A stretch of DNA of 51,443 bases from a virus, in the IMG/VR virus record IMGVR_UViG_3300035698_018289, positions 1-51,443 of that record; one strand, written 5' to 3'. The translations under genes were made by a program, and so were the position numbers. Positions 1,008-27,110 of this stretch are shown in pieces. The notes under the pieces were generated by a model that was given only the letters and a program-made list of their open reading frames with translations, did not search any database and had not been told where the DNA came from. The first letter of the stretch is position 1. Each line of letters opens with the position of its first letter.

Positions 1008-2120
1008 ATGTGGAATAGAAAACAGTTTGGAAGCCAGCAGCCGCCCCGAAACACAGACGCAATGTATGAGTCCATGGTGGGTAGTGGGCGAGATCCCAAT
1101 AAAATGAACCGAAGGATGCGCAAGCAGCAGAAAAAAAGGAATAAGTTTGATCCAGATGGACGGATGCGGGAAAGATACGATAATCGCCCTCAAATGCAGG
1201 CCTTCATGGATGATAGGGCGCGGTCAGAAAAGGTTAGGGTGGATATGGGTATCGACCACAGCTATGATAATCCTTGGAACGGCATGCAGCCGAAGCAGCG
1301 CCCGCAACTCGGCTATAAAGCCATGAAAGATCAGCTGAGCAGACCAAACCTGCAGACGCAAGACAAATCGCGGGGCATGGATCCGCGCGGTGTAAGGGGC
1401 CCCAATATGGAATTCAGACAGCCCAACACGGGGAACGGTAAAAACGATTTTCTTGAACATGAAGCAAGCCTGCAGCCGGGGTATCAGCAGAAGATGTACG
1501 ATAAGCTAATGGAGTTTTCACAGCCTGGAGTAATGCCGGAGCGCATGCAGCCGGACCAAAGGAAAGAGAACGATCTTAAGCTAATGAAGCAGCCTATGCC
1601 CGGACAAGGATTGGGTCAGGGCGAATATGGTTTTGCTGGCGGTAGCCAGAATTTCAACGAAAGCACAGGTACTTACCAAAATCAACCTCTTTCTGGCGAG
1701 GAAATAGGGCCTGACGGTAACTTTGTGCAGCCCCAGCTTGCCCAACCCGGAGTTATGCCTATGCAGGACCCAATGACCGGCGGCCATATTGGCCCGGGGC
1801 AGCAGCCGATACCGAATTGGGCACAAAACCCAAACAGCGAGATCATGGATCAGGTGCGCAACTGGAAATCAGGGCGGGGCCAGCAAGCCCCGGGCGCTGG
1901 TGGCCCGATGCAGGGCATGGTGGAGCAGCAAATACCCGAACGGCAGCAGATGCCCGACCGTGCAGGACTTGAAGGAATGTTCAACATGGGCGAGATGAAA
2001 CAACGCCGGCAGCGCAAAGCGGGCCGCATGATGGACAGATTCGCTGGATCAAGCGGCAACCCGCGCAGGCAGGGCCGTATGCTTGACAAGATGTTTAAGA
2101 AATCGCAGAAATGGGGTTAA
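1008..2120 (+). CDS. Low-complexity Gln/Pro/Met/Gly-rich internal virion protein (putative)
   Basis: 370 residues starting at ATG after AGGAGCC. The N-terminal 60 residues are strongly basic (RRMRKQQKKRNK); the middle is dominated by P, Q, G and M with no obvious fold; the C-terminus is again basic (KQRRQRKAGR, FKKSQK). Residues about 60-87 (PQMQAFMDDRARSE...) are almost identical to a segment of the gene at 2797, and the DNA is 80/83 identical, so the two genes share a recent duplication. Position directly upstream of other ejection-type genes suggests a virion internal or DNA-associated protein. No enzymatic motif seen and no family recognised. Confidence 0.6.
   Translation: MWNRKQFGSQQPPRNTDAMYESMVGSGRDPNKMNRRMRKQQKKRNKFDPDGRMRERYDNRPQMQAFMDDRARSEKVRVDMGIDHSYDNPWNGMQPKQRPQLGYKAMKDQLSRPNLQTQDKSRGMDPRGVRGPNMEFRQPNTGNGKNDFLEHEASLQPGYQQKMYDKLMEFSQPGVMPERMQPDQRKENDLKLMKQPMPGQGLGQGEYGFAGGSQNFNESTGTYQNQPLSGEEIGPDGNFVQPQLAQPGVMPMQDPMTGGHIGPGQQPIPNWAQNPNSEIMDQVRNWKSGRGQQAPGAGGPMQGMVEQQIPERQQMPDRAGLEGMFNMGEMKQRRQRKAGRMMDRFAGSSGNPRRQGRMLDKMFKKSQKWG
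1186..1268 (+). repeat. 83-bp direct repeat, copy A
   Basis: Matches 3212-3294 at 80 of 83 positions. It lies in frame inside the gene at 1008 and encodes the PQMQAFMDDRARSE segment. Both copies are read in the same frame, so the duplication preserved coding. Confidence 0.9.
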
Positions 2121-2796: not shown

Positions 2797-4566
2797 ATGG
2801 CACAAAATGCACCGAGAGACTACTTAGGCAGCGAAAGCGGACTGTCGAGAGATTATGGCCTCAAAACGTCTGATTCCCAGGATACGCTGGAATATTATAA
2901 TTATTTGAAGGCCAACGACCCGAAGCAGGCCGTTAAATTCCTAAAGGAAATGGGGAAACTTGGCTGGAATCCAACACAGGCAGCCGAGGATATGGCTGCA
3001 TCTGAAGCGTATGCCAACCAAGAGCCCGAAGCAGTAACGTATGATGATTTTTATGACAGCATGAAAGACCCCCTCATGGCAGAAATTGAGCGTCATTCTC
3101 CTGACGGTCGAGGTCATGCTTTGGGGAATATGGTTGACGCTATGAAGCGCGCTCCCGAAGAATTTGCGGCCTATGAGCGTAAGTGGCGCGAGGCTGGCAA
3201 TGAGGGTCGGAGCCCTCAAATGCAGGCCTTCATGGATGATAGAGCGCGGTCAGAACAGGTTAGGGTGGATATGGGTATCGACCCCAGCTATGATTACGAC
3301 AGCCAGACTACCGACGTTCGTGGCCGAATCGCAGATAATGACGCTGGGTATCAAGACCAGGTTGGCGATATCAATGCGCAACTGGCTGAACGCGCAGCAC
3401 GCATGGAAGGTGATTATCAGGAGCACGGAGTTGGTGGCGCGAGATATGGCGCGCAGGACGATCAGGCCCTTGCCAACATGGGCAGAGTAGGCGGCGAAGG
3501 CTTTGCAGAAGAATATGGCGATAATACTCAGGGCTTTCTTGGCGACCTGCAAGAAGGTGTGCAGGATGGCAGCGAACGCAACGATGCCGTTCAGAACATG
3601 CTTACCAGCGCAGCGCAAGGCGATCTTAACGATCCGGCAAATGATTTTTACCAGAAGCAACTGGCATTGCGCCGGCCGGCTATGGACGAAGCTCTTGACG
3701 CTGTTACTGAACGCGCTGGACAAACACGCGGAGTCGGTGGCGGGAGATACAACAAGCAAATGCTTGATACTGCTCGGAAAATGCAGGCAGATACCGAAGC
3801 CAGCTTGTCCGGCATGCAGCTGGCGCAGGCAAATAACGCTGTTAATTATCAGACCGGGCAGGATAACCGGAATGTAAGTCTTGCAGGGCAGGCAGCGGGC
3901 ATGCAGAACGCTGTCACAAATGCCGGATTAAACGCGAATCAAGGCGTTGCTGGCGTGGTCGGCAACCGTGCGGCAGCTTCAAACGCTAATGAAAACATGT
4001 TTAACCAGATGGCCAAAGAGGGCCTTGAAAATCAAATGGGCGTTGATCAAAGCGGTACTGACAATATGTTTAAGCAAATGACCTATGACGACAGGGAAAA
4101 AGACCGCATTAATGAAACCCACGTAAACCCGATTGAAGCTGCAATGCAGGAAACCATGGCATATCAGGATTTGCTTAATATGGATCTTGGCAAAGAAACT
4201 AAAATGAGCAAGAAACAGCGCAAAGCTGCTAACAAACTGGGGCAGTTTCAGGGTATGGGCATGGACGGAACGAAAGTTGGCGTGCATGGCGCTGCCGGGC
4301 GAGGGGAAACCTTATCAAAGAAACAGCAGAAAAAATATGATAAGCAAATGAAAAAGCTGGGCGTTTTTGATAAAGTTGGCGCGGATGTTACGAAGAATAA
4401 AACCCTAATGAACCAGATGCGAGAAACAGGGGTGATGCCAGGGCAGGCTTCTGGCGGGTACGCGCAAGAGGGAAGCAGCTATCAGGGCAAGTACCTTCAA
4501 AAAGTAGCTAAACGCGATGCAAAAAACGCAAAAAAGGCGGCGAAGGCGGCCCGCAAACTTGGATAG
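2797..4566 (+). CDS. Internal virion/ejection protein (putative), 589 aa
   Basis: Start ATG after GGGGAAATAAC. Mostly polar, predicted helical, rich in Q, N, A and M. It contains the PQMQAFMDDRARSE segment shared with the gene at 1008 (residues about 140-166), and two copies of an internal motif [HR]GVGG[AG]RY (near residues 210 and 311), each followed by Q/K-rich helix. The C-terminal 60 residues are very basic (KKQQKKYDKQMKKLG; KRDAKNAKKAAKAARK). Long A/Q-rich helices with a basic tail are usual for podovirus internal core proteins that leave with the DNA. No catalytic motif recognised; role inferred from position between tail genes and the giant protein. Confidence 0.65.
   Translation: MAQNAPRDYLGSESGLSRDYGLKTSDSQDTLEYYNYLKANDPKQAVKFLKEMGKLGWNPTQAAEDMAASEAYANQEPEAVTYDDFYDSMKDPLMAEIERHSPDGRGHALGNMVDAMKRAPEEFAAYERKWREAGNEGRSPQMQAFMDDRARSEQVRVDMGIDPSYDYDSQTTDVRGRIADNDAGYQDQVGDINAQLAERAARMEGDYQEHGVGGARYGAQDDQALANMGRVGGEGFAEEYGDNTQGFLGDLQEGVQDGSERNDAVQNMLTSAAQGDLNDPANDFYQKQLALRRPAMDEALDAVTERAGQTRGVGGGRYNKQMLDTARKMQADTEASLSGMQLAQANNAVNYQTGQDNRNVSLAGQAAGMQNAVTNAGLNANQGVAGVVGNRAAASNANENMFNQMAKEGLENQMGVDQSGTDNMFKQMTYDDREKDRINETHVNPIEAAMQETMAYQDLLNMDLGKETKMSKKQRKAANKLGQFQGMGMDGTKVGVHGAAGRGETLSKKQQKKYDKQMKKLGVFDKVGADVTKNKTLMNQMRETGVMPGQASGGYAQEGSSYQGKYLQKVAKRDAKNAKKAAKAARKLG
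3212..3294 (+). repeat. 83-bp direct repeat, copy B
   Basis: Second copy of 1186-1268 with three substitutions, in frame in the gene at 2797. The near identity over a stretch that also varies at silent positions elsewhere in both genes implies recent transfer between them rather than common ancient descent. Confidence 0.9.
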
Positions 4567-4590: not shown

Positions 4591-5904
4591 ATGACGACCC
4601 TACGCAACAAACCACAGCGCTCGGAAGCGGGAGCAAGCGCAGCAGCAGTTTCGGCTTACCGGCCCGAAAAGCGGAGCACTCAGGGCGATGCCGCTATTTT
4701 GCAAATGGAAAGATCCTTGCTAAATTCTGCCGAAGGCCGGCAGGACATGCACAACAGCATGAGTTTGCTGGACCACCAGACCGGTACGACAGCAAAGCAG
4801 CGCAAAACCGACGCTGACACAGCGCGAGCTGATAAAACTCAAGACCGAGAGCAATCACAGCTTACCCGTAAAGAGAAACGCGCTGCACAGGAATTTTCCT
4901 TTGAATTTCTCCAGCATCCTGAATGGCAGGATCCGGAGAACCGCGAGGACGCACTTACAGCCATTGAAGCGATAATGGAGAAAAACGGCATTAAGGATCC
5001 CGCGAGTGCAGCAAAAATCGCAGGGCCATTAACAAAATGGGGAGAATCAAGGCGCGCAGCTGCAGCAGAACAGGACGATAAAATTGAATTACGCAAGCGC
5101 GAGTTTCCTCTTGATATTGAACTGGAGAAAGCGAAAGCTCTAACGAGAGCACAATACCGGGCAAGCAGCCGAGCCAAGGCACAGCCTTCTTGGAACACCC
5201 ACGCGGAAGGCACTATCGAGAAAATAAATATGGAAATGTTGGTTATTCGGAACAAGCTGTTAGCAGAAAACTCCAAAGTATCCAGGTTTGGCCGTGGTGG
5301 ACCAGACGACGACAAGATTGCAGGACTTAATGCGCAGCTTGAGCTTCTTGAAAATGCTAAAATTGAAGCTCAGGCCAATTTAGAGCGCGGCGTTAATGGA
5401 AGCCCGGCCCAGGCAACAGAAAAAAACCAAGACCAGCAGGCACCGCAGCGAAAATATCCCCGCGCAGAACTCGAAACAGAGGACGCCAGACGCAAGGCTG
5501 TTCGCGCCGCGCCTGCCGTTCAGCCAGAAACACCTGTCCAACCTGCTGCGATTGCTCCCGAACAGCAAGCTCCGGCTCCCCAGCAACCAGCACAGGAAGC
5601 TCCGGCTCCCCAGCAACCAGCACAGGAAGCAGGGCTGCCAGAGGTGGCCGGGCAAAGGAGAACACCTGCGCCGGGCAGAGATCCGCTTGACGCTATCTTG
5701 GATTTTCCGGGCAAAGTAGTGGACCATTTCAATCAAAAGGGAACAGAGTTGCAAATTCAGCAAGAAAGCGCAATAATATCTGCCTATGACGGCGGGGCAT
5801 CGCCTGAACAGATTGCAGAAAGCCTTCATATGTTCGCAAATCCAGAGCAGAACCTTCAATATGTGATGAGTGTTTTACAGCGATCGCAAGTAGCACAAAA
5901 ATAA
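4591..5904 (+). CDS. Coiled-coil internal virion protein (putative), 437 aa
   Basis: Start ATG seven bases after GGAGGAAT. Residues 60-270 are highly charged and helical with heptad-like spacing (KTDADTARADKTQDREQ; EKRAAQEFSFEFLQH), interpretable as extended coiled coil. Residues about 300-360 form a P/A/Q linker containing an exact tandem duplication of 30 bp (unit APAPQQPAQE). The last 80 residues are compact and end in a helix containing a PEQIAESLHMF stretch. Gene order (just before the giant protein) suggests an internal core component that assembles with it. No known domain recognised. Confidence 0.6.
   Translation: MTTLRNKPQRSEAGASAAAVSAYRPEKRSTQGDAAILQMERSLLNSAEGRQDMHNSMSLLDHQTGTTAKQRKTDADTARADKTQDREQSQLTRKEKRAAQEFSFEFLQHPEWQDPENREDALTAIEAIMEKNGIKDPASAAKIAGPLTKWGESRRAAAAEQDDKIELRKREFPLDIELEKAKALTRAQYRASSRAKAQPSWNTHAEGTIEKINMEMLVIRNKLLAENSKVSRFGRGGPDDDKIAGLNAQLELLENAKIEAQANLERGVNGSPAQATEKNQDQQAPQRKYPRAELETEDARRKAVRAAPAVQPETPVQPAAIAPEQQAPAPQQPAQEAPAPQQPAQEAGLPEVAGQRRTPAPGRDPLDAILDFPGKVVDHFNQKGTELQIQQESAIISAYDGGASPEQIAESLHMFANPEQNLQYVMSVLQRSQVAQK
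5569..5628 (+). repeat. Exact tandem repeat, 2 x 30 bp
   Basis: Two identical 30-base units, GCTCCGGCTCCCCAGCAACC plus ten more bases, encoding APAPQQPAQE twice in the Pro/Ala/Gln linker of the gene at 4591. Likely replication slippage in a spacer that tolerates length change. Confidence 0.9.
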
Positions 5905-5928: not shown

Positions 5929-8900
5929 ATGAGCGACTTGTCACATTTAACCGACGAAGAACTCAACCAAATGCTTGCGACTACAGATCCGCAGCAGCCT
6001 GCTGGAGATCAATCTTCTTTCGATCCAGACGGCCCCGGATACGACGACGCGACTGCTGATCAGATTATTGCTAAATATCCTCTTACGGTATCCAAGCCCG
6101 ACAAATTTGAAGGCCAGACAGTTAAGAACGAGGGTTCTTTCCAGTCATGGCAATGGCATCCAGAAGAAAATGATTATAAGGTGCACGGCGGCAGCTTTGA
6201 TGGCTCAACCGGGATGCTGTTAAAAGGCAAAGGGCATGCAACCTTTGATCTTGCCGCGCAGGAAGAAGAACGGCTGGGCAACGAAATCTATAAGAATGAA
6301 ACTGACGGTCGATATTATACCCGCAAAAAGCTAAACCAGGTATCTGACGAAGAACTCAACCGATTGCTTGCCGAAGCAAGAGAAACACCAGAAAAACCTG
6401 ATCTTGGTTTTTTCGATAATGTTTTCGAGAATTCTGCCAATCTTGCGCAAAGTGCCGGATATGGTGCAGTTGGTTCAGTTGGCAATATTATGGTTGGCGA
6501 TGGTGTGCGTGATTCGTCGTTATGGAATCGCGCAGGACGCAAAATGCAAGATTATAGCTCGGAAGGGCTTGAAGATATCCCCGACGGCTTGTACAAAAAC
6601 ACAGGTACGAGTATAGGTGTTTCTTCTCCGGGTATAGCCCTTGCTTTCCCCGGCAGAGCCATTGGCGCTCTTGTAGGTTCGGCTGCCGGTCCTGCTGGAA
6701 CGGTAGTAGGCGCGGCTGTTGGTGCAGGTGCAGCGTCTTACTGGCCTATGTACGCATCTGCCAGAGGTGGTTTTTATAATGATGCTTTTGACGAGGAGAC
6801 AAGAAGGGTCGGGCGTGAATTAACCGACGCAGAATATGCCGCATGGGAAAAGCGTATAGCGCCAATGGCGAATGAATATGCAAGATGGGAAGCAATCGGC
6901 GAAGCCATTGGAAATACTGCACTGTTCGGTGCCGGGAAAATCCCCGCAAAATCAATCCTTTCGGGAACGCTGGGCCAGTTTGGGAAAAGGTCTGCCGGCT
7001 GGACGACAAAATTTATTGTAGAACACCCGAAACTAACAAAACTTATGGCCGAGCCTATGAAGTTTGCAGGCGGTCTTGTTGGTGAAGGTATAGGCGAAGT
7101 AATTACCGAAGTTAAGCAGACCCCGATTGCCTATAAAGCCGGGCTTGCAGATAGCCCCAATGTCTCTATTGGCGATGCTGCACGCGGAGTAATGCCGACC
7201 GTCACGCTACAATCCGCTATAATGTGGCCTATTACCCGGTTTCTTGGCGGTGCAAGTGCTTCCCAAAAAAGGCGAATGAAAACCGGAGATACCGCCGAAG
7301 ATACGGTTAATCAGAGCGCAGACGAATTTGATATCCAATTTGGAAGCGATGAAGAGATAAACGAAATTGCCGAAACGGTAAAAGACCTTGAATTGCTGGT
7401 TGAAAGCGGACAGGTAACGCCAGACGATTTAATTGAAAACGCTGAGTATCTTGAGAAGAATCACCCCGATGATGCCAGGTCACAGGTACTTGCCGGAATG
7501 ATACGCGATTTGGCCTCAGATGCACAGGAAGGGCTCGAAGCTGCCGGGACAGCTGGGCAGGATACGCTTATTGATACCAGCGAAGATAATCTGCCGCCGC
7601 TGTACCGTGATGAAAACGGCGAAGAGATAATAGAACCAAGCGCATGGGAGGGTATGCCTGCTTCCAGAAACGCTGCACAGCGAGAGAGACAAGGCCCGCA
7701 AGAAGCAGCACCACAAAACATCCCACTTGCACAGCAGGATATTACACAATTAAGCGATGTGGAGCTTGAGGCTTTGCTTGACGCTGCGGAGTTGCAAGAA
7801 GAAGCATTTAACCCCGCGCATGAATCAGCGAGGGTATTAGAAGCCGGCGCAGTCCGTGAAGATAATCTCCGGCAGTCTCCAGCCGGTGCGCAGGGCCTAC
7901 AGGCACAGCTTGCACAGCAGGAGGATCCCAATGCTGGTAATACTGAAAACGACCAAAATCAAGGGCCAGCCGGACTCCAAAGCGATCAGGAAGTTGTACC
8001 GGATCAGACTGAAATCCAGACACTCAAAGGGCAGCTTGCAGAGCTCCAAGGCGTGCGCGGAGCCGCAGCCGGCAGACAAAAGATAAACCTCAAGGCGCGG
8101 ATTGCGGAGATTGGAACAGAAGCAGCCTACAATGATCCCAACCGCTTGCCGTATGAAGCCAGCGATCACCCGCTTGAATTTATGCTGGATCAGTATAATG
8201 ACGGTTCGATTGGAACAATCAACGATTTTGTGCCCGAAATTGAAAGCATGCTCGATGATGGGCTTATCAATGACAAAGAGCTCAGAATTTCTGTCGATAA
8301 CTATCACCGCGCTGTTCGTGCCGATACAGAAGAATATGGCAAACGCAGCGGCCTTCCAGAAGAAGCTGGCGAAAAGTTCATAGCCGAGCTGGAGCGAGTT
8401 GTTGAAGCAGAAAAGGCAGGATCCGCGCCTGCTGCAGCAGTACCCAAAGAAGCCACCCCCGCGCTGCCCGAAGCTGTTGCCCCGGTTGAGGGCAGCGCAC
8501 CTTCCTTGGACTTTAATCTTGACACCAAACTACCAGCATTATCCGAACATTGGGATGCAGAATGGCAGCGATCCGAAGCCCTGGGCGAAAAGAATCAGCC
8601 CGAGGTCAAGGCGCTTAACGAGCAGATTGCTGCGCTCAAAGGTGTGCGCGGAGCAAAGGCCAGCCAACAAAAGAAAGAATTAAGGGCCCAGATCGACGAA
8701 CTTGAATCCGGCCCTGCGAATATCCAAGGTGCTGCTGAAAGTGCAGTAGTGGACGCGCAGGAGAGGTTACGCGATGTAGTTATTTCAAAAGTCAAGGAGC
8801 GTGTTTCCGATTCAGAGCAGGCAGAGCAGATTACCGATGATATCATGGAGGACCTTACCAACCCGCGCCAGTATGAAGGCTATGGCCCGAATTGGAGCAA

Positions 8901-11900
8901 AACAACTGTTGGTGAGGTTGTTGACGATATCATGGACGCAGACAGGGGGAATAAAGAAGAGGCTTCTTCCCCCTCAAATAAAAAGACCAAAATCCCAGAT
9001 GGCGATCTGGCCCTTGAAGGCAGCAAGGCTATTACAAAGCGTCTTGCCGCTGTCAATAAACAGATCAAAGCGAAGGAAGGCGTTTTTCCGCGTCAGCCTG
9101 GAGCACTGGAACGGCACAAAAAGGCCATTGCCAAGCTGAAAGATCGGGCCGAAGCCCTGACCGCTCGGTTGGACAGTCCGGCCAAAAAACCCGCAGCCGA
9201 GAAAAGCATCGACGGAACCGAGTATGTTGCTTCCTTTCCGGAGCAGGTTGAAACCAAAGAAAAAGCAGTCGAACCTGCAGCCGATATCGACCAGCAAAAC
9301 AGGGATGCGCTGCGAGATAAGGCCACAAGTGCCTATGCTCACACGTCACACAGCCCCGGCCAGCGTGCAAAAAGCGAAGTTGAATGGTACGACGCAGCCG
9401 TTAAAGAGATCGAGGACGTGCTGGAAAAAGAAGGCTCAGACAAGAGCAGGCCTTATCGCGCCGACGTAATGGAGGAATTTAAGAAAGATTACACAGCCAA
9501 GCGGATCAACGTGCTTAATGTCCGGTCTGGTGTCGTATCTTCCCACATTGCAGGCCGGAATAACTTTAATAAGAAACCGGCCGACCGTCGCGGAGCCGGC
9601 CTTGACCGGGCAGAGGACAATTTTTCAAAATGGCTTGAGACTGAAAAAAGGGCGATTTATAACGCGCAGGGTGTAACCGACACCCGCAATGCTGCTGCCG
9701 AGGTTAAAGCCGAGAAGAAGGCAGAAGTTAAGGGCAAAGTTGATATTATGAGAGTTATCGCCTGGACGAAGTTAAAACCGGGCGATCCGATTGACGTTGG
9801 CGGTACTGGTAATCCTGTTATAGCGGAAAAGAACCAGTTTTCGGTTGTAACAGAAACAGGTGGTAAGTGGACGCTTAAAGAGTTGCTGGGCATCCCGCAT
9901 ATCAAAGCCCGCAAGATCATGGCTGATTATAAAAACGGCCTGTATAGAGACCTGGACAAATTGCAAGAAAAGGCCAGCGCACCGAGGGAAGCAGCACCCA
10001 AGGCCCAGCCAGCCGACAAGAGCGATCGTCGAATAGTAGATCCCGCCATCGATGATGCCGGTACCGCGATCCGCAAACTTGGCGGCGTGAACAAAGCAGA
10101 CGCACTTAAGCAGTTTGGTCGGAGAATTACCGAGATTGACCAAAAAACAAACCGGGGCAAGGGATTAACCTTTGGCCTTCCGCTTATCAGTTTAAAAGGC
10201 ATGAGTGTAGCCGACATGGGTGCAAGTCTGGCCGAAATGGGCTATATAGGAGACGCAGACGGTAGAAACTGGACCGAACGCGACGTTGAGGAAGTTTTAT
10301 TTAAAGCGATAAACGGGGAACCGGTTTATTCCCGCCAGAATCAAAAAGCTTTCGGTGAAGCCGAAGAAGCTAAGCTGGCCCAGGCCGAAGAAAACCACTA
10401 TGCCGAGCAGGAACAAAAAGAGCTCGACCAAATAAGGGAGGATGCAGAAAATGACGGAGAATCAGCAGAAGATATTCGAGCGATTCAAGAAAGTGCTAAA
10501 AAAGAGATACATGCGGAAGCTGAAGCAGGTTCAGGCGCAACAGAGCAAGTAACAGCGAAAACCAAAGAATTGCTTGACGCTGACGGCTTTGATTGGGGAT
10601 CCGGTGAGCAGGCCGACAAAGAAGACTCTTTTGCTTTAACTTCCCCCAAGCAGAAAAAAACATCGGCACCCAAGCCAAAACAGAAGAATTTACTCGCCGT
10701 ACAAGCAGAGTTCCCCACAGGACCGCAGGACACCAGCGGCGAGGTCTTTGAATTTCCAGTTCCCGATACCCAATCTCAAAAGCTGTTTGATGGTGAAAAG
10801 CCAAAGACAGGCATTGAAATCCCAGCGAAAGACAGCGCGCTTACCTCAGAAACCGATATCCGCGATAGGATAAAAAGCATTGACCGTCAAATTGACGCAT
10901 TGGACTCCGTGCGGCGACCTTCAAGCAACAGCCTTAGTTTTGAGAAAAGACAGAACAAATACAAAGCGCTTAATGAGCGCAAGGCTATGTTGCAGAAACA
11001 GTTAAGCCAGCTGCACCCGGAATCAAAACCCGCATCAAAAAATGAAGAAAACAACCCGCAACAAGTTGAAAAACCTTCGGAAAGTAGTATCAAAAACCGG
11101 ATCAAAAACCGTGAAGAAAACCGTGAAGAAAACCGTGAAGAAAGCCGTGAAGAAAAAGCATGGGGCAAGCCGGAACAGCTGGCAGCAGCTCTAAAGGAAA
11201 CCCCCGTTGCGGCTAATGCGGCTAATGCGGCTAATACCCCTGAACTTTCAAAATCCGGGCAATATCCCCTTGCCGAGCACAATGCGGTTCTGGAGCGTGC
11301 TAAAGACGGCAAGCTATCGGTTGAGCAATATCAGGCAGCTTTCCAGCGGGCAGTTGATAATAGGGCCGAGATACAAGCCAGTTTCAACGCCATGACCAAG
11401 CAGCAGATTCTTGACGATCGCGGCGGGTATTTCGCATCCCGCTGGAAGAACGATAAAAAAGGCCAGATCGCCGGCGCAGCTACCAGCGACGTTATTTCTG
11501 ATTTCGCTATAGGGCGCGGCATTTCCTACACGATGGTAATCGGCGGGGGGATGAAAAACAGCGGGCACACCGCAGCCCTGAAAAAGATGGTTGCCGAAAC
11601 CGATCAGGCGATGCTGGATGGGTATGCTGCAGCCGTTGCCGAGAGTAAAGCAGCCAATGAAAAGAAATACGAAGGCGCGAAGGATCCCAAGACTTTTGAC
11701 GATTTTCGCACCTACTTTTCCCTGCAGGGCCAGCTTAAAGGCCAGACAGTCCGGCAGATATATCTGGAGCTCACACCAGAGCAGCAGGAAGCATTTGACA
11801 GGCTTTCCAGTGAGCTATCCCGCGAACAGCGCAAGAAGAACGAAGAAAGCTATAAAACAAGGGCCCCGCACGCGCCTACGATCGTTGAAGGCGAGGTAAT

Positions 11901-14900
11901 TGAAACCAAGCATACCAAAAAAGGGCATGACTTATTCGTTGTCCAGGCCGGAGAAAAGGTCGATCGTGAAATTTATAATGAATGGAACGGCACAGCGAAA
12001 CGCATGGGCGGCTACTATTCATCGTTTAGGGGCAGCGGAGCCGTTCCGGGATTCCAGTTTAAAACCCGCGAGAATGCCGATGCTTTCCTTGATTACCTGA
12101 AAGGTGAGACAGGTGCAGCACAAGACGTAATTAAGAAGCGCAGGAGCGAATTTGCGGACAATAAGGAGCAGTCTGCGGTAGAACGTCTGCGGGATATGGC
12201 TGCGAAGCTGATTGCCCGCGCTGATGCCGTTAAAAACCAAGACCGGAAAACAAATACCGCACGGCGGGCAGGAATGGCAGCAAACGCGGAAGCGGCAGCA
12301 GACACCGATATCGCCCTTGCCGGCACAATGGAGAACATCGCACGCGCCATCGAGGACGGTAAAGCCGATGAATTGGAGAAGGTCCGGCAGAAAGTACAGG
12401 TCGAATTTCTGCGCACAATGCTTAATCGCGCTTTTCAAGCTGAACTGGATTCAAAGTACGATTCTTATCAGGATCGGGAAAATCATAAGTATGATCAGCC
12501 AGAACCGTCGATTGCGCGGCATTTAACCTACCCGACGTACACCATGTATCGGTCTGATCTGGCGAACATGGCCCGGCAGCTGATTGAGATTACAGGCACA
12601 AAACAGCTGGGCACGGCAATATTAAAAAAAGCCGATGATAACACCGCAGCCTACAAGAAGTTTGTTAAAGCCAATATTACCGATGTAGCCGTATTTTCTA
12701 AGAAAGATGGCTCACACGCTGCCTTTTCTTCCATGCGCGCTGCAGCTGCATCAATCGAGGGATCCGGACTGAAAGGCCAAGCATTTGCTTTCAAAGTGAA
12801 GGCTGGTGAGTTTCTTGTAGTCATGTCTCCGTCAATGGCGAAAGAAAAAGGCGTATGGAATGGCGATGATGATGCCCGCGTTACGATCGGCCCGATTCTT
12901 GCCGGTAAGATTGCCAGCAAATTCAAGAAACTGAAAAAAGCAGGCATTAACATTCCCTGGCAGTTTGAAAGCGTACACGAACAGCGCACGCGATTAGAGC
13001 GTATGGGAATAGAGACCCCTTCAGAGCTGCGTGCCGCCATCAGGAAGTTTATAGCCTTACAGGAGGGGTACAAGGGCCCGGACAAAATCAAAGAGCTTGA
13101 GCGCGCTTTGGTGGGCCGACAAAACGACGGTATGGATTTCTTCCCGACACCTACAGCAACAGCGCAGGACATGGTTGAGACTGCAGGTATCGAGGAAGAT
13201 ATGCGTGTTTTGGAGCCATCTGCCGGCATGGGCCACATTGCTGAAATTATCCGAGCTGCAGGCGTGGATCCAGACGTGATTGAAATGTCCGGAAAGCGCA
13301 GGGAATTGCTCGAAGCAAAAGGCTTCAATGTAGTTAATGACGATTTTCTGGAATACTCAGACGTTTACGATCGCATTATTATGAACCCGCCATTTTCTAA
13401 ACGGCAAGATGCAGAGCACGTTCAGCATGCTTATGATCTACTCAGGCCGGATGGTCGTATCGTTGCGATCATGGGAGAAGGTGTATTTTTCGGGCAGGAC
13501 AAAAAGGCCGTTGCTTTCCGTGAATGGCTGGATGAAGTTGGCGGCACATCGGAGAAATTGGAAGAAGGCACGTTTAACGATCCGTCGCTGCCGGTAAACA
13601 CCAGCGTAAACGCCAGATTGGTGGTTATTGACAAAGCCAAAGTTGCAGACTATAAAGGAGACACCGACCTTAAATCTTTTGAATCACCGAGAAAGCAGCT
13701 ATACCCGCATGAAACCCTACTTGATAATATCGAATCCGCCGCGAAAGTTATACGATCTGCGGCAAGAGAGCTTCGGGCCGGAAGCAGACGCTCAAGCATC
13801 CCGATGGTGCAAGCTGCCAGAGTACGGTATTTGGGTCGAGACTTTAGTCCTACTTTCGCCAGCAAAATCGCGCAAAACCTCAGAGAGCAAGGAAAATCCG
13901 TCCTTGTAGGCCATACCATTGAAAATGGCTACGATCTTGGCATGTTGGGCCAGGTATTCAGAAACCCCCGATTTGAAAGCATGTACGCTATTTTTGTCGA
14001 TGATTCTGGTAAGATAATCGACTATACCGGCATGTCCTCCCGCCTTCCCGACCAAGTTTCTACCACCTTCACAGACCAGGGGAAGAAAAAGCATCTTGCT
14101 AATTATCTTCGAGAGCAGATGTTGCGGCACGGTGCGGCAAATTACTATTTAATGCACAACCACCCTACCGGAGATCCAAAGGCTTCTCAGATAGATATAG
14201 ACCTGACTGCAAATATTGCAAAGCAGGTGCCGGGCTTTATAGGCCATGTAATCATAAATTCCAGCAAGTTTTCAGTGCTTACGACCACAAAGCCAAACAG
14301 TATGCCGACGTGGAAATGGGAGCAAGGGCAGCGCGACAAAAACAAAACTCCTATTGGCGAAGTGATTTCACAGGTACACCGGCCTGATTTCTTGCTTGAA
14401 GCAGCCATTGAGCATGATCTGCTGGGCGTTGAGCTGACCGGCAATGATGGCGGCAGGCAAGCAACCCTTACCCAGCTGGCAGAGATTGGTAAGCAGATTC
14501 AGGCCAGTCCGAAAAAAGCTACGGTGTTACTCACAAGCGCCGGGCTAAAAGTGCGTGCGGTTCTTAATGTTGAAATGAGCTCGCTTGAAGATCCTATTGC
14601 AGCCAAAAAGCTGATAAATAAACACATGCGCATGAATGGTGCGTCTGCAGCCCTTGCATATTTCCCCGAAGGCACGGAAGTTTCACGCGACATGATGCGG
14701 AACGGCCCGTTTATCGATGTGATCACCCTGGCCGAGGATCCGCTTGTCTGGTCAGGAGAAGTGGGTTTTTACAATAAAAAGGATCAGCTGTCAGACGGAA
14801 GCCCTATAAGCGAGAAGGTTGCCGAAGAAACAAAGGAATACGCCGGGCCGGAGGAAACCAAAAAACCTGAACGATCCGTAACCGTCGAGCGTGATGCGAA

Positions 14901-17802
14901 GGGTAAGCCCACTTTAAAGTTTGATCGCGGCGGCAAACGCAGCCCGGAAGCTATAAAGAAAAAATATCAGGATTATCTTGCCGCACTGAAAGAAACCAAG
15001 GCAACAGAACCCCCTACCAAATTAGCGGCAGCGAAACAGGGGTACCGTTATGGTAAGAGCGAAGCCATTGCTGGCATGCGGCACGATTTAAGCTATAAGA
15101 CTAAAACCGTTGCGCAAACGCAAAAACTTCTCAAGATGTATATTACCAAGATGCTGCCAAAAAGCGAACGTGCTGACCTGAATTCCCGCCTGCTCAAGAT
15201 CCTGCCGACGAATACCGAAGCCCGTAACCAGAAGTTATTAGGGGAAGTTTTGACCCGCACGCAGGAGATAAAAGAAAGGGTTGACCGCAAGGCATTAACC
15301 GATGAAATTAAAGAACAAATTCGCCGCGCACAGCCTGGCGGTAAAAAGCGCCCGATCAATTATAAAACTACCCCTGAAACGATAAAGATTATCACCCGCA
15401 TAGAGCAGGGATTGAACAAAAATTACCAGGATGCCCGCGATAAGATTGCAGCCAATATGCAGGCATGGCAAGCCCAAGGCCAGGACGGAGCGCCAAGGCT
15501 CTCTCCTGAACAAATGGAACATCTCCGGCAGGAAAACTTTTACCTTTCCATGCAGGGCATTCGAGACATGCCAATTACCGAACTGCGCAAAACGCTGTCA
15601 GCCATATATGATATTCAGCAGGGCGGCAGATTGGAACGCGCAATAAACGACAAAGAGATTCAAGAGGAAATGGACGCGGTTACTGAACAGGTTTTCTCAA
15701 TTCTGACCAACAAGAAGGGCTTTAAGAAGGGGCATCAGTCACGCAGCTCAAAAAGCCTTGAAGCAAAAAAAGGCTTCGTTGATAAGCTGTTCAACTGGCA
15801 GTATGGCGTTGATAGCCTGCTTGACAAGCTCTCAAAACACGAAAACGCGAAGCAGTATCAAGGATTTTTAAGTAAGTATTTTGGCGACAAAATCCACAAT
15901 GCTACCAATGATGAAGCTAACGGCGTTAAAAACACCTTGGATAAAGTCCATGAGAACTTCGGCCGGATATTTAAAGTTAGCTCGAAGAAGGATGTTAGCA
16001 AGGCCCTGAACCGGCTCAATGAAACTATCAGCATAGGTTTCGTGAACGCTGATGGCGTGAAGATTGAAGGCAAAGACGCTGAAATGACGCGGGATCAGGC
16101 AATTAAAAAGATTATGGAATGGCGGGATCCTTCCCTGCGCGATACTTTCCTTGGCTATGCCGATGATAAAGGCGCGTCAATGGGTATGCGCTGGACGGAA
16201 AAATACCTGCAGGACATTGAAAGCGAGCTCACAACCGAGGAAAAGGCATGGGCACAGTGGCAGCTTGATTTTTACAATGAATACTATGACCGGGTTAATG
16301 CGGTCTACGAGAAGATTTTTAACGTATCGCTGCCAAAGAATGAGTTTTATTCCCCGATTGTGCGGGATAAGAACGCAGAAATCCCGGAAATGATTTTAAA
16401 CTTCAGGGAACGCTTTGGCCGGGGATCTACTTTGAGCAAGGCCCACCTGAGCCGCGTGCCGAACATGGGCAAACTGGAGTTTGTCGGCGCGACGGAAACC
16501 CTCTATAGCCATATTGTACAGATGGAGCACTTCGTTGCCTGGACAGAACCGATAAACACCCTGCGCAAAGTTTTCAATAGCCACAAGATACAAAAATCGA
16601 TCAGCCAATATCATGGCCGCGATATGCAAAATCAGCTGTACGTTATGATAGACCAGCTCGCGCGCGGTGGTGTTGAAAAAGCAAAAACCATGCGGGTGCT
16701 CGATAAGGTTAGGACGAACTTCACAAAGTCTGTACTGGCAGTTAATCCGCTTGTAATGCTCAAGCAGATTCCGTCTGTAATGGCGTTTTCAACAGAAATG
16801 TCGATCCCTGAGTTTACAGGCGGAGTGCTGGACTTCTGGACCAATCCCATTGCGCACCATCGGGAATTGATGAAGAAGTCAACGTCATATCGCCGGAGAC
16901 ACACAGAGGGTTTTGAGCGTGACATTCGCGCTGCATTAAAGAAAAAATGGACAAAGCAGTTTGTCGGGGCCTCTTCCTTGACGGATAAGTTGATGTTCAC
17001 AATCCGCGCTGGTGATAAGTTTGCAACCGCGCAGGGCATGTGGGCAGCATACAGGGCCGGGATCAAAAACGGTAAGAGCGAAGCTGACGCGATACGGGAT
17101 GCTGAAATGCTGATGAATCGCACGCAGCCAACAGGTGATCTTGCGACCATGGGCCGCGCTCAACGTGAAGGTTCCTGGATGAAGTTGCTCACCATGTTCC
17201 AGAATCAGCCCAACAAATATTTTCGGATCATTGCTGACAATATGCGCAACATGAAGCATGGCCGTCAAAGTGTGACGAAAGGTGCTTATAATATAACCCT
17301 GGCCTGGGCTGTCCTGCCTATGCTGTTTCAGCTCATGGCCGACCGGGATTGGGATAATGAAAACCAACTCCGTGCGATATTGCTTGGCCCGCTTAATCAC
17401 ATGCTGGTATTCGGCTCTTTTGTGAAGTGGTTAAGCGGCATGGTTGTGGGCGAAAACTTCAATTATTCTGTCTCCCCGGTTGTTTCCATGCTCGATGATG
17501 TACGCTTTGGAATTCAAAAGGTGAACAAAAAGAAGTTGGACAACGACGATGTTGAGGAAATCATGTGGCGTTTTGCCGAAGTTGCTGGAGGTTTAACCGG
17601 AACGCCTGCACCTTTTGCCAAGAAAGTGCGCAGGGCTGTTAAAAACAAAGATCCGCAGCAGGTTCTTTGGTCGGAATACACGTTAAATAAGGCGCGAGGG
17701 ATTAAGGAAAAACGGAAATCGAGTAAAAGTAAATCTTTGTTGGACGGAAGTGGGAAAAAATCACTTTTTAGCGGAGAAAGGAAAAGTCTGCTGGATCCAT
17801 AA
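5929..17802 (+). CDS. Giant 3957-aa DarB-like ejection protein: adenine methyltransferase + JAB/RadC-like + large polyvalent protein domains
   Basis: ATG after AAGGAGTGGCCC. One intact 11.9-kb frame, nearly a quarter of the window. Visible order: short D-E-E-L repeats (near residues 7, 137, 606); hydrophobic Gly/Ala segment about 232-275; acidic P/A/E linker with coiled coils carrying a GVRG motif (near 700 and 910); a large-polyvalent-protein-type domain about 1150-1245; tandem REEN linker about 1726-1742; another such domain about 1800-1975; a GHDLFVV / GGYYSSFRG module about 1990-2055; an N6-adenine methyltransferase with motif I LEPSAGMGHI near 2429 and motif IV NPPF near 2485; a JAB/RadC-like metallopeptidase fold with HNHPTGDPKASQID near 2741-2755; and a long C-terminal helical domain (about 3280-3900) like those ending other giant phage ejection proteins. 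Family knowledge: P1 DarB and relatives are packaged and injected to blunt restriction. Ejection with the DNA and protection from restriction are inferred. Confidence 0.8.
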   Translation: MSDLSHLTDEELNQMLATTDPQQPAGDQSSFDPDGPGYDDATADQIIAKYPLTVSKPDKFEGQTVKNEGSFQSWQWHPEENDYKVHGGSFDGSTGMLLKGKGHATFDLAAQEEERLGNEIYKNETDGRYYTRKKLNQVSDEELNRLLAEARETPEKPDLGFFDNVFENSANLAQSAGYGAVGSVGNIMVGDGVRDSSLWNRAGRKMQDYSSEGLEDIPDGLYKNTGTSIGVSSPGIALAFPGRAIGALVGSAAGPAGTVVGAAVGAGAASYWPMYASARGGFYNDAFDEETRRVGRELTDAEYAAWEKRIAPMANEYARWEAIGEAIGNTALFGAGKIPAKSILSGTLGQFGKRSAGWTTKFIVEHPKLTKLMAEPMKFAGGLVGEGIGEVITEVKQTPIAYKAGLADSPNVSIGDAARGVMPTVTLQSAIMWPITRFLGGASASQKRRMKTGDTAEDTVNQSADEFDIQFGSDEEINEIAETVKDLELLVESGQVTPDDLIENAEYLEKNHPDDARSQVLAGMIRDLASDAQEGLEAAGTAGQDTLIDTSEDNLPPLYRDENGEEIIEPSAWEGMPASRNAAQRERQGPQEAAPQNIPLAQQDITQLSDVELEALLDAAELQEEAFNPAHESARVLEAGAVREDNLRQSPAGAQGLQAQLAQQEDPNAGNTENDQNQGPAGLQSDQEVVPDQTEIQTLKGQLAELQGVRGAAAGRQKINLKARIAEIGTEAAYNDPNRLPYEASDHPLEFMLDQYNDGSIGTINDFVPEIESMLDDGLINDKELRISVDNYHRAVRADTEEYGKRSGLPEEAGEKFIAELERVVEAEKAGSAPAAAVPKEATPALPEAVAPVEGSAPSLDFNLDTKLPALSEHWDAEWQRSEALGEKNQPEVKALNEQIAALKGVRGAKASQQKKELRAQIDELESGPANIQGAAESAVVDAQERLRDVVISKVKERVSDSEQAEQITDDIMEDLTNPRQYEGYGPNWSKTTVGEVVDDIMDADRGNKEEASSPSNKKTKIPDGDLALEGSKAITKRLAAVNKQIKAKEGVFPRQPGALERHKKAIAKLKDRAEALTARLDSPAKKPAAEKSIDGTEYVASFPEQVETKEKAVEPAADIDQQNRDALRDKATSAYAHTSHSPGQRAKSEVEWYDAAVKEIEDVLEKEGSDKSRPYRADVMEEFKKDYTAKRINVLNVRSGVVSSHIAGRNNFNKKPADRRGAGLDRAEDNFSKWLETEKRAIYNAQGVTDTRNAAAEVKAEKKAEVKGKVDIMRVIAWTKLKPGDPIDVGGTGNPVIAEKNQFSVVTETGGKWTLKELLGIPHIKARKIMADYKNGLYRDLDKLQEKASAPREAAPKAQPADKSDRRIVDPAIDDAGTAIRKLGGVNKADALKQFGRRITEIDQKTNRGKGLTFGLPLISLKGMSVADMGASLAEMGYIGDADGRNWTERDVEEVLFKAINGEPVYSRQNQKAFGEAEEAKLAQAEENHYAEQEQKELDQIREDAENDGESAEDIRAIQESAKKEIHAEAEAGSGATEQVTAKTKELLDADGFDWGSGEQADKEDSFALTSPKQKKTSAPKPKQKNLLAVQAEFPTGPQDTSGEVFEFPVPDTQSQKLFDGEKPKTGIEIPAKDSALTSETDIRDRIKSIDRQIDALDSVRRPSSNSLSFEKRQNKYKALNERKAMLQKQLSQLHPESKPASKNEENNPQQVEKPSESSIKNRIKNREENREENREESREEKAWGKPEQLAAALKETPVAANAANAANTPELSKSGQYPLAEHNAVLERAKDGKLSVEQYQAAFQRAVDNRAEIQASFNAMTKQQILDDRGGYFASRWKNDKKGQIAGAATSDVISDFAIGRGISYTMVIGGGMKNSGHTAALKKMVAETDQAMLDGYAAAVAESKAANEKKYEGAKDPKTFDDFRTYFSLQGQLKGQTVRQIYLELTPEQQEAFDRLSSELSREQRKKNEESYKTRAPHAPTIVEGEVIETKHTKKGHDLFVVQAGEKVDREIYNEWNGTAKRMGGYYSSFRGSGAVPGFQFKTRENADAFLDYLKGETGAAQDVIKKRRSEFADNKEQSAVERLRDMAAKLIARADAVKNQDRKTNTARRAGMAANAEAAADTDIALAGTMENIARAIEDGKADELEKVRQKVQVEFLRTMLNRAFQAELDSKYDSYQDRENHKYDQPEPSIARHLTYPTYTMYRSDLANMARQLIEITGTKQLGTAILKKADDNTAAYKKFVKANITDVAVFSKKDGSHAAFSSMRAAAASIEGSGLKGQAFAFKVKAGEFLVVMSPSMAKEKGVWNGDDDARVTIGPILAGKIASKFKKLKKAGINIPWQFESVHEQRTRLERMGIETPSELRAAIRKFIALQEGYKGPDKIKELERALVGRQNDGMDFFPTPTATAQDMVETAGIEEDMRVLEPSAGMGHIAEIIRAAGVDPDVIEMSGKRRELLEAKGFNVVNDDFLEYSDVYDRIIMNPPFSKRQDAEHVQHAYDLLRPDGRIVAIMGEGVFFGQDKKAVAFREWLDEVGGTSEKLEEGTFNDPSLPVNTSVNARLVVIDKAKVADYKGDTDLKSFESPRKQLYPHETLLDNIESAAKVIRSAARELRAGSRRSSIPMVQAARVRYLGRDFSPTFASKIAQNLREQGKSVLVGHTIENGYDLGMLGQVFRNPRFESMYAIFVDDSGKIIDYTGMSSRLPDQVSTTFTDQGKKKHLANYLREQMLRHGAANYYLMHNHPTGDPKASQIDIDLTANIAKQVPGFIGHVIINSSKFSVLTTTKPNSMPTWKWEQGQRDKNKTPIGEVISQVHRPDFLLEAAIEHDLLGVELTGNDGGRQATLTQLAEIGKQIQASPKKATVLLTSAGLKVRAVLNVEMSSLEDPIAAKKLINKHMRMNGASAALAYFPEGTEVSRDMMRNGPFIDVITLAEDPLVWSGEVGFYNKKDQLSDGSPISEKVAEETKEYAGPEETKKPERSVTVERDAKGKPTLKFDRGGKRSPEAIKKKYQDYLAALKETKATEPPTKLAAAKQGYRYGKSEAIAGMRHDLSYKTKTVAQTQKLLKMYITKMLPKSERADLNSRLLKILPTNTEARNQKLLGEVLTRTQEIKERVDRKALTDEIKEQIRRAQPGGKKRPINYKTTPETIKIITRIEQGLNKNYQDARDKIAANMQAWQAQGQDGAPRLSPEQMEHLRQENFYLSMQGIRDMPITELRKTLSAIYDIQQGGRLERAINDKEIQEEMDAVTEQVFSILTNKKGFKKGHQSRSSKSLEAKKGFVDKLFNWQYGVDSLLDKLSKHENAKQYQGFLSKYFGDKIHNATNDEANGVKNTLDKVHENFGRIFKVSSKKDVSKALNRLNETISIGFVNADGVKIEGKDAEMTRDQAIKKIMEWRDPSLRDTFLGYADDKGASMGMRWTEKYLQDIESELTTEEKAWAQWQLDFYNEYYDRVNAVYEKIFNVSLPKNEFYSPIVRDKNAEIPEMILNFRERFGRGSTLSKAHLSRVPNMGKLEFVGATETLYSHIVQMEHFVAWTEPINTLRKVFNSHKIQKSISQYHGRDMQNQLYVMIDQLARGGVEKAKTMRVLDKVRTNFTKSVLAVNPLVMLKQIPSVMAFSTEMSIPEFTGGVLDFWTNPIAHHRELMKKSTSYRRRHTEGFERDIRAALKKKWTKQFVGASSLTDKLMFTIRAGDKFATAQGMWAAYRAGIKNGKSEADAIRDAEMLMNRTQPTGDLATMGRAQREGSWMKLLTMFQNQPNKYFRIIADNMRNMKHGRQSVTKGAYNITLAWAVLPMLFQLMADRDWDNENQLRAILLGPLNHMLVFGSFVKWLSGMVVGENFNYSVSPVVSMLDDVRFGIQKVNKKKLDNDDVEEIMWRFAEVAGGLTGTPAPFAKKVRRAVKNKDPQQVLWSEYTLNKARGIKEKRKSSKSKSLLDGSGKKSLFSGERKSLLDP
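11107..11154 (+). repeat. Tandem 12-bp repeat x4 (REEN linker)
   Basis: AACCGTGAAGAA repeated four times, the last unit with one change (AGCCGTGAAGAA), coding for NREE units in the giant protein. It sits between two domains and is probably a flexible charged linker expanded by slippage. Confidence 0.9.
11209..11235 (+). repeat. Tandem 9-bp repeat x3
   Basis: GCGGCTAAT three times in a row, coding for AAN AAN-type alanine-rich residues in the same inter-domain linker of the giant protein as the 12-bp repeats. Confidence 0.9.
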
Positions 17803-19971: not shown

Positions 19972-20463
19972 GTGTCAGTATTCGACATAACGGACGATTT
20001 TACCGCAAACGAGTTTGAACCCCAGCCGGAGCGCATGAACGGTGCGCTTGTCCTGGTAGGGCAGGCTATCCGCGACCTTGTTCATATCCGCATGGAAGTG
20101 ATCAGCGCGGGCGGCACAACCGGGCACACAGACCTATCTCAGCACTACTTCTGGAATGCTTTTGACTTTTGGTGTCCGGACGTTGCATACTCCGTAGCAT
20201 TACACCGCATCAACCTTGCCCTTAAAACGCTCCAGATTGAGGATCGTGTCGGTTTCGGCATCTACCCCGACTATCGCTATACCCCCAGCTTCCACATCGA
20301 TCTGAGGGGCCACAAAGCCCGCTGGGGCCGCGTTTGGTGCCGTGACGTGCTGGGAGCTAAAATATGGCAAGATGCAGAGAAAACAAAACCGCTGTATGAA
20401 TATATTTCGATGGAAGCAACTTTGGCCTATATGCAATCTGACCTGTATAAAAAGGAGCACTAA
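19972..20463 (+). CDS. M15-family peptidase endolysin (L,D- or D,D-peptidase)
   Basis: 163 residues, GTG start after GAGGT. It has the zinc-binding pattern of M15 peptidases: SQHYFWNAFD giving His58-x6-Asp65, and FHIDLRG giving His108 near the C-terminus, with WGR after it. Length matches short phage M15A endolysins that cut peptidoglycan cross-links. It opens a four-gene cassette with two membrane-anchored small proteins and a second cell-wall enzyme, so it is the probable lysis enzyme. No signal peptide, so a holin is needed. Confidence 0.8.
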   Translation: MSVFDITDDFTANEFEPQPERMNGALVLVGQAIRDLVHIRMEVISAGGTTGHTDLSQHYFWNAFDFWCPDVAYSVALHRINLALKTLQIEDRVGFGIYPDYRYTPSFHIDLRGHKARWGRVWCRDVLGAKIWQDAEKTKPLYEYISMEATLAYMQSDLYKKEH

Positions 20464-25082: not shown

Positions 25083-25309
25083 CGCACAACCCCCAACGAT
25101 ATGCCTTTCACGGCTTTTCTGGCTATTTCGTACTGCTCCAAGATGAGCAGGGCCATACGCCTAAAATACGACCGTTTAAATTCTCGACCCCCTTCCCTTT
25201 TACGCCTGTCCATATCTTCTATGATTTCCCTGACAGCACTGCGGTAAAAGCCTACCGTCCTAATTGCAAGCGGTTCGGTGCTTTTTTCTGTTATGGTCGC
25301 GTCCTTCAT
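25079..25309 (-). CDS. Small basic helical protein, 76 aa
   Basis: ATG overlaps the helicase stop (TAATG). Highly charged helices: REIIEDMDRRKREGGREFKR, SYFRRMALLILEQYEIARKAVKG. Net basic, so nucleic-acid contact is plausible. Directly downstream of, and coupled to, the helicase gene, suggesting a partner. No family recognised. Confidence 0.6.
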   Translation of the reverse strand: MKDATITEKSTEPLAIRTVGFYRSAVREIIEDMDRRKREGGREFKRSYFRRMALLILEQYEIARKAVKGISLGVVR

Positions 25310-26940: not shown

Positions 26941-27110
26941 TTGCACTTCCGAATACCCTTATAGCGGGATGCGCCTTTTAGCCTTTTGCTAAACTCCGGG
27001 TTCATTCTGGCATATTTATACAATAAGTTTGGGTGAGGCCACCCCCCGCCAGCATAGATATCGACAATGTTTTTCCCCGTTGTCTTTATTTCTTCTATTG
27101 TCTCGAACAT
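26937..27110 (-). CDS. Small HTH-like protein before helicase, 57 aa
   Basis: ATG after AGGAGGTGGGGAATAGCAA; stop overlaps the helicase start (ATGA). The middle, IVDIYAGGGWPHPNLLYKYA followed by RMNPEF, resembles the helix-turn-helix start of small terminase and homeodomain-like phage proteins, with a basic tail (KRLKGASRYKGIRKCK). Possibly a DNA-binding cofactor for the helicase; this is inference. Confidence 0.55.
   Translation of the reverse strand: MFETIEEIKTTGKNIVDIYAGGGWPHPNLLYKYARMNPEFSKRLKGASRYKGIRKCK

What the first reader, a model, noticed from the sequence alone, without database searches (positions are those of the whole stretch)
5929..17802. A 3957-aa DarB-like protein as the largest virion-type gene
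One intact frame joins a hydrophobic glycine-rich segment, several large-polyvalent-protein-type domains, an N6-adenine methyltransferase (LEPSAGMG, NPPF), a JAB/RadC-like HNHPTGDPKASQID module, and a C-terminal domain resembling other giant ejection proteins. Known relatives such as P1 DarB are packaged. Sitting with four other ejection-type genes between tail and lysis modules, it may be an injected antirestriction machine that modifies or shields entering DNA. The JAB domain in such a protein could be a deconjugating enzyme or a RadC remnant.
Basis: partly seen in the sequence, partly recalled or inferred. Interest (0 to 1): 0.85.

Follow-up and report, generated by a model that had tools for sequence, protein, structure and literature searches.

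The report
Giant injected phage methyltransferase–RadC protein
A podovirus-like phage encodes a 3,957-residue protein that is probably packed in the particle and injected with the DNA; it carries an intact DNA-adenine methyltransferase and an intact RadC-type metal-dependent JAB domain, a new combination within a known class of giant 'polyvalent' phage proteins.

Summary
The frame at 5929-17802 is real (3,957 aa). It belongs to the giant 'polyvalent' virion proteins of phages. Its core (aa 1781-2571, ending in a gamma-class N6-adenine methyltransferase with all motifs intact) is 46-55% identical to giants in very different phages. These include H66 gp60 (3,787 aa, recorded as mass-spectrometry-verified in virions) and, more weakly, a structural protein of a tailless phage. 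Packaging and injection are therefore well supported by homology, but not shown for this phage.

'DarB-like' holds only for the methyltransferase: the SNF2 helicase of P1 DarB is absent here, and none appears after the methyltransferase in 58 diverse relatives. That downstream slot instead holds swapped modules (ADP-ribosyltransferases, zincins, ParB, RNases). Here it holds a RadC-type JAB domain with every JAMM residue intact and a RadC fold, so it is not a remnant. The same JAB subfamily occurs in 43 IMG/VR contigs, all in large frames. [quoted passage not shown]

The C-terminal domain matches BPP-1 Bbp10 and other podoviral giants. Best reading: an injected, helicase-free methyltransferase plus RadC effector that shields or processes entering DNA. 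Antirestriction activity and the JAB substrate are untested.

The parts
5929..17802 (+). Gene for the 3,957-aa giant polyvalent virion-type protein
   Evidence: Single intact frame with ribosome-binding-like AAGGAG upstream, far longer than chance
6601..6783 (+). Glycine/alanine-rich segment, about aa 225-285
   Evidence: Read directly from the translation; not hydrophobic enough to look transmembrane
9361..9633 (+). Short conserved module of unknown function, aa 1145-1235
   Evidence: 33% identity to H66/LKA5 and to about two dozen viral-contig giants
11269..12990 (+). Conserved region of the core, aa 1781-2354, upstream of the methyltransferase (includes the AKRxGGYYSS / VPGFQF motif block)
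   Evidence: Conserved with the methyltransferase as one block in 8 aligned giants (A1); block pLDDT mostly 80-95
12991..13641 (+). Gamma-class N6-adenine DNA methyltransferase domain, aa 2355-2571 (FFPTP, LEPSAGMG, NPPF)
   Evidence: PHROG methyltransferase families; invariant motifs in A1; Foldseek hits HsdM 2okc, M.TaqI, M.BseCI; motif positions
13675..14343 (+). RadC-type JAB/JAMM domain with N-terminal extension, about aa 2583-2805; E2683, H2743, H2745, S2753, D2756
   Evidence: PF04002 above gathering; 40-member alignment A7; AF2 model and Foldseek match to RadC 2qlc; 31% identity to a JAB protein of a conjugative Nitrosomonas plasmid
16426..17643 (+). C-terminal domain shared with podoviral giants, aa 3500-3905
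   Evidence: phrog_9880 E 1e-22; BPP-1 Bbp10, Nostoc phage, Rhodobacteraceae phage, ctEw122; L075
1008..5904 (+). Four upstream genes (1008-2120, 2083-2784, 2797-4566, 4591-5904), candidate partner ejection proteins
   Evidence: Position and composition; only 2083-2784 has a weak internal-virion-protein match
19972..20463 (+). Endolysin-like gene marking the start of the lysis module downstream
   Evidence: Weak phrog_894 endolysin match, E 0.0044

Best explanation
This is a giant polyvalent protein of a podovirus-like phage. It is packed in the head and injected with the genome. In the new host the methyltransferase core acts on the entering DNA (N6-adenine methylation, or binding at type I-like sites) and so blunts restriction; the RadC-type JAB module in the downstream effector slot performs a zinc-dependent cleavage that helps the phage early in infection. 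The N- and C-terminal regions serve packaging and ejection. Shown here: the intact frame, intact methyltransferase and JAMM residues, relatives recorded as virion proteins, absence of a helicase, and module swapping after the methyltransferase. Inferred: packaging of this particular protein, injection, antirestriction, and the substrate of the JAB domain.
For: Core 46-49% identical to H66 gp60 and the viral-contig giant L003, 42-43% to LKA5 gp58 and L004, and 28-47% (in pieces) to ARM81mr p69, a Vibrio phage giant and Salisaeta phage 1 gp43. H66 gp60 is annotated as mass-spectrometry-verified and SSIP-1 gp43 as structural. A DarB-like giant of Bcep22-type phage JC1 (gp69, 4,515 aa) was found in virions (PMC9144972). 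P1 Dar proteins are packed in the head and ejected with the DNA (PMC12810830), and the first 30 residues of DarB target the capsid (PMC9024508). Methyltransferase motifs intact and fold of HsdM/TaqI type. JAMM residues intact and RadC fold. Variable effector domains after the methyltransferase in 58 relatives. The core has hits in very different phages although no other tested virion gene of the window matches those loci, so it travels as a module under selection.
Against: No virion proteomics, methylation data or infection tests exist for this phage. The DNA-translocating helicase thought to be essential for DarB-type modification is missing. No specificity (target-recognition) domain was identified. 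How DarB itself works is undefined; in plasmid tests the restriction relief came from the DNA and not from the protein (PMC11109961).
Confidence: 0.55

Rival explanations
1. The JAB domain is an internal maturation peptidase: it takes the place of the zincin-like metallopeptidases that relatives carry after the methyltransferase, and cuts the giant protein into working pieces during assembly or after injection.
For: H66 and LKA5 carry two HExxH zincin motifs after the methyltransferase, and several viral-contig relatives carry one or two; the window protein has no HExxH but has an intact JAMM site. Iyer 2017 proposes that zincins process polyvalent proteins (PMC5512222).
Against: Some JAB-bearing giants also carry HExxH motifs (L101, L103, L105, L126, L132), so JAB does not simply replace zincins. 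RadC-clade JAB domains are argued to lack the ubiquitin-tail groove and to act on nucleic acids (PMC5512222). No RadC protease activity is known to me.
Confidence: 0.2
2. The methyltransferase does not protect DNA by methylation. It works as a DNA-binding tether or carries a regulatory mark, and the payload domains after it are the real effectors.
For: No helicase in any of 58 relatives, while the downstream domains vary widely (ADP-ribosyltransferase, PBECR RNase, ParB, GNAT, RadC). Without a translocase and specificity subunit, full modification of a genome before restriction seems slow (inference).
Against: The catalytic motifs (TP, EPSAG, NPPF) are invariant or nearly so over about 35 divergent giants (A1, A5), which argues for selection on catalysis.
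Confidence: 0.25
3. The JAB domain removes ubiquitin-like modifiers used by bacterial anti-phage conjugation systems (Bil, CBASS Cap2/Cap3 and the like).
For: JAMM deubiquitinase folds appear next after RadC in the fold search, including bacterial BubCD.
Against: The match to RadC is about four orders of magnitude stronger, sequence models name RadC in 40 of 40 members, and RadC is argued to lack the tail groove (PMC5512222).
Confidence: 0.08
4. The protein is not in the particle and acts late, for example in DNA modification before packaging or in assembly only.
For: No proteomics for this phage; gene position alone cannot tell.
Against: Relatives in H66, JC1 and SSIP-1 are recorded as virion proteins; same position before the lysis genes in H66 and LKA5.
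Confidence: 0.07

Closest known systems
H66 gp60 / LKA5 gp58 / F116-type giants (Hollowayvirus, Pseudomonas)
   Same: Core aa 1781-2571 is 43-47% identical; same length class; last virion-type gene before the lysis genes; H66 gp60 recorded as mass-spectrometry-verified in the virion
   Different: H66 carries LPD23, LPD3 and two zincin motifs where the window has RadC-JAB, and both have a C-terminus not detectably related
P1 DarB
   Same: Homologous adenine methyltransferase domain (hhalign E 3e-7); DarB is a packed, injected antirestriction protein
   Different: DarB is 2,255 aa with the methyltransferase at its N-terminus, an NVPF motif and a helicase; the window protein has NPPF and no helicase
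Phage polyvalent proteins (Iyer 2017, PMC5512222)
   Same: Multi-domain giant with methyltransferase and effector domains encoded among virion genes
   Different: That survey reports the methyltransferase as nearly always fused to a helicase and RadC only in conjugative-element proteins; here neither holds
RadC-like JAB proteins of conjugative plasmids (e.g. Nitrosomonas WP_107787995.1)
   Same: 31-36% identity including the N-terminal extension and all JAMM residues; encoded next to a zincin protein on a conjugative plasmid
   Different: Solo protein of about 368 aa on a plasmid, not part of a virion giant
BPP-1 Bbp10 and other podoviral giants (phrog_9880)
   Same: C-terminal domain aa 3500-3905
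   Different: They were found only through the C-terminal domain; none was listed as a match to the methyltransferase core or the JAB segment

Membership tests
Phage polyvalent protein | Several unrelated domains of disparate activity in one very large polypeptide | tested here: met
   Methyltransferase, RadC-JAB and phrog_9880 C-terminal domain in one frame
Phage polyvalent protein | Encoded among virion genes | tested here: met
   Same strand and cluster as portal (E 2e-19), terminase (E 3e-14) and a tail-fibre-like gene; upstream of an endolysin-like gene
Phage polyvalent protein | Present in virion and injected | not testable with these tools
   Only by homology: H66 gp60, SSIP-1 gp43, JC1 gp69
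P1 DarB-type antirestriction protein | EcoKI/TaqI-type adenine methyltransferase domain | tested here: met
   hhalign to DarB E 3e-7; fold hits
P1 DarB-type antirestriction protein | SNF2-type helicase C-terminal to the methyltransferase | tested here: not met
   No helicase family in the window protein or after the methyltransferase in 58 relatives; no Walker A or DExH motif
P1 DarB-type antirestriction protein | Protects DNA against type I restriction | not testable with these tools
   Needs infection assays
RadC clade of JAB domains | PF04002 match above gathering score | tested here: met
   31-37.6 bits against 22.1
RadC clade of JAB domains | Intact JAMM residues E, HxH, S, D | tested here: met
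   E2683, H2743, H2745, S2753, D2756
RadC clade of JAB domains | RadC fold | tested here: met
   AF2 model, Foldseek 2qlc E 1e-7, TM by target up to 0.75
JAMM deubiquitinase-like isopeptidase | Closest fold among JAMM isopeptidases | tested here: not met
   RadC ranks first; isopeptidases only at about 1e-3

The most novel reading that the evidence does not exclude
Phages of many lineages share a horizontally moving, helicase-free DNA-methyltransferase core with an adjacent effector slot, and here the slot delivers an active RadC-type JAB enzyme into the host with the DNA. This would be a virion-borne RadC whose activity, nuclease or peptidase, has not been measured.
Probability: 0.4. Interest if true: 0.62.

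Novelty: new variant of a known kind. Interest (0 to 1): 0.45.

Why it matters
RadC is found in very many bacteria, yet its biochemical function is disputed. Finding RadC-type JAB domains with intact catalytic residues again and again inside giant phage proteins that are likely injected (43 viral contigs) gives that function a concrete setting: early infection. It also corrects a published generalisation that RadC is confined to conjugative-element polyvalent proteins. The helicase-free methyltransferase core, conserved while its downstream effectors are swapped, separates two activities that are usually discussed together for DarB, so each could be tested alone.

Tried and rejected
Megablast of the first 25 kb against phage records: no match. 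Viral-contig scans with the JAB segment alone, with the C-terminal segment and with the terminase as single proteins returned no confirmed relatives; the alignment A4 of the C-terminal domain was not conserved enough to search with. The first 1,654 residues have no phage match. The idea that the C-terminus equals that of H66 or N4 virion RNA polymerase was tested by hhalign and not supported; matches to LPD38-bearing ends were marginal. 'RadC remnant' rejected because all JAMM residues are present. 'Zincin replaced by JAB' kept only as a rival because other giants carry both. The genome collection gave one distant relative only (31%, Opitutaceae MAG), so the host is unknown. Bcep22 itself was not in the collection under the accession tried, so the JC1 paper was used and no sequence comparison with Bcep22 was made. 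The main DarB mechanism paper (Piya 2017) was not in the library.

Full report
What is there. The frame 5929-17802 is a single uninterrupted ATG frame of 3,957 codons, with AAGGAG just upstream. Twenty shuffles of the window gave no stop-free run above 265 codons. The window is the whole of a 51,443-base virus record. Portal and large-terminase genes are recognisable, and a tail-fibre-like gene lies at the right end. The terminase is about 31% identical to its best match, over 86% of its length; the first 25 kb has no close phage relative at the DNA level.

Domain anatomy. Pfam finds only RadC (PF04002) above its gathering score and weak methyltransferase matches. PHROGs finds giant-protein families over aa 1645-2571, among them 'DNA methyltransferase', and phrog_9880 at the C-terminus. 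The conserved core, aa 1781-2571, aligns end to end with giants from other phages (alignment A1). It ends in a methyltransferase with FFPTP (aa 2404), LEPSAGMG (2428) and NPPF (2486), the motif set of gamma-class N6-adenine enzymes described for polyvalent proteins (PMC5512222). An AlphaFold2 model of aa 1781-2830 is mostly confident in the core (most blocks pLDDT 80-96); its solved-structure hits include HsdM proteins, M.TaqI and M.BseCI.

Relatives and packaging. The closest annotated relatives are the F116-type Pseudomonas phages. H66 gp60 (3,787 aa) is recorded as verified by mass spectrometry in the virion and is the last gene before holin and endolysin. Salisaeta icosahedral phage 1, which is tailless, has the core in gp43, recorded as structural. 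A DarB-like giant of phage JC1 was detected in virions (PMC9144972). At least 576 stretches in viral contigs encode relatives of the core. None of 20 other window genes, including the head and tail genes, finds a match at E 0.01 in any of the related loci fetched by then. The core therefore appears to move between phages as a module. This comparison covers only the DNA around each match, up to about 10 kb on each side.

No helicase. P1 DarB, the archetype, aligns only through its methyltransferase. It also carries a Walker A motif (GLGKT) and DEGH; the window protein has neither motif. Pfam scans of 860 residues after the NPPF motif in 58 diverse members found ADP-ribosyltransferase (14 members), LPD39 and LPD23 (5 each), MuF_C (4), RadC (3), LPD3, metallopeptidase families, PBECR RNases, ParB and acetyltransferase domains; no helicase was among the 25 families shown of 27. 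Some members were cut off by contig ends.

The JAB domain. In the window it follows the methyltransferase directly (about aa 2583-2805). It has no phage match at E 0.01 as a single sequence and three plasmid matches, the best a JAB protein on a conjugative Nitrosomonas plasmid next to a zincin protein. Aligning it with that protein and with the viral giant L047 gave a conserved block that found 43 viral contigs (one of them, L114, is the same contig as L047). In every one the domain lies in a frame of 795 to 5,267 codons. In 14 of these giants scanned, LPD38, which the 2017 survey reports only from phage-type proteins, occurs in five and ddrB-ParB in three; L137 also encodes an internal virion protein. 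Across 40 sequences E2683, H2743, H2745 and D2756 are invariant and S2753 is present in 39. The search patterns included H2743-N2744 or H2773, so conservation there is partly selected for; E2683, H2745, S2753 and D2756 were not in the patterns. The model of the domain is confident over its catalytic part (block pLDDT about 79-97) and matches RadC 2qlc at 1e-7; JAMM isopeptidases follow at about 1e-3. The sequence fits the JAMM consensus E...HxH-x7-S-x2-D, with N in place of S/T between the histidines (PMC300881, abstract).

C-terminus. Aa 3500-3905 match Bbp10 of BPP-1, giants of a Nostoc phage and of ctEw122, and a separate 500-aa gene of a Rhodobacteraceae phage that lies just after a giant annotated as a methyltransferase. 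In that phage the domain and the giant are two genes; here they are fused. It is not detectably the C-terminus of H66 or of N4 virion RNA polymerase.

Mechanism. The best-supported reading is an injected polyvalent protein: packed through its terminal regions, delivered with the DNA, acting on that DNA through the methyltransferase, with RadC as a second effector. Packaging rests on homology. Antirestriction rests on analogy with DarB, whose own mechanism is described as undefined (PMC11109961). The missing helicase matters, because Iyer and colleagues argue that DarB-type modification needs it (PMC5512222). For the JAB domain the RadC identity favours a nucleic-acid or nucleotide substrate; a maturation peptidase role is a live rival, since relatives carry zincins after the methyltransferase.

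Novelty. Polyvalent giants with methyltransferases are known. New here are the methyltransferase-RadC pairing in a virion-type giant, the recurrence of RadC in giants of phage type against a published statement of the opposite (PMC5512222), and the helicase-free core with an effector slot. Later literature outside the library may already record some of this. I file it as a new variant of a known kind.

Noticed in passing
window 1186-1268 and 3212-3294: An 83-nt direct repeat, 96% identical, places the same peptide block (PQMQAFMDDRARSExVRVDMGID) inside two different upstream virion-type genes.
   Followed up: partly
window 5947-5976, 6340-6369, 7750-7779 (aa 7, 138, 608 of the giant): Three copies of a short motif like LTDEELNQML in the N-terminal part of the giant; about 0.001 expected by shuffling, and one copy in only one other giant scanned. 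Possible packaging or partner-binding motif.
   Followed up: partly
window 17734-17799 and 2083-2784: The giant ends in SKSLLDG/KKSLFSG/RKSLLDP; the upstream gene 2083-2784 holds QQSLVSQ/QQSLLDP/GQSLVED. A shared short linear motif may connect the two proteins.
   Followed up: partly
window 28455-31843 (minus strand): SbcC- and SbcD-like genes (PHROG E 2e-35 and 9e-18), and an SF2-type DNA helicase at 25309-26946 in the same minus-strand region.
   Followed up: no
L094 3-1505: In Rhodobacteraceae phage LS06-2018-MD07 the C-terminal domain of the giant is a separate 500-aa gene directly after a giant annotated as a methyltransferase: fusion or fission of the same parts.
   Followed up: partly
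L097-L139: 43 viral contigs carry the same RadC-type JAB subfamily in large frames, some with zincin motifs, RelA/SpoT, zeta toxin or SNF2 domains in the same protein.
   Followed up: partly
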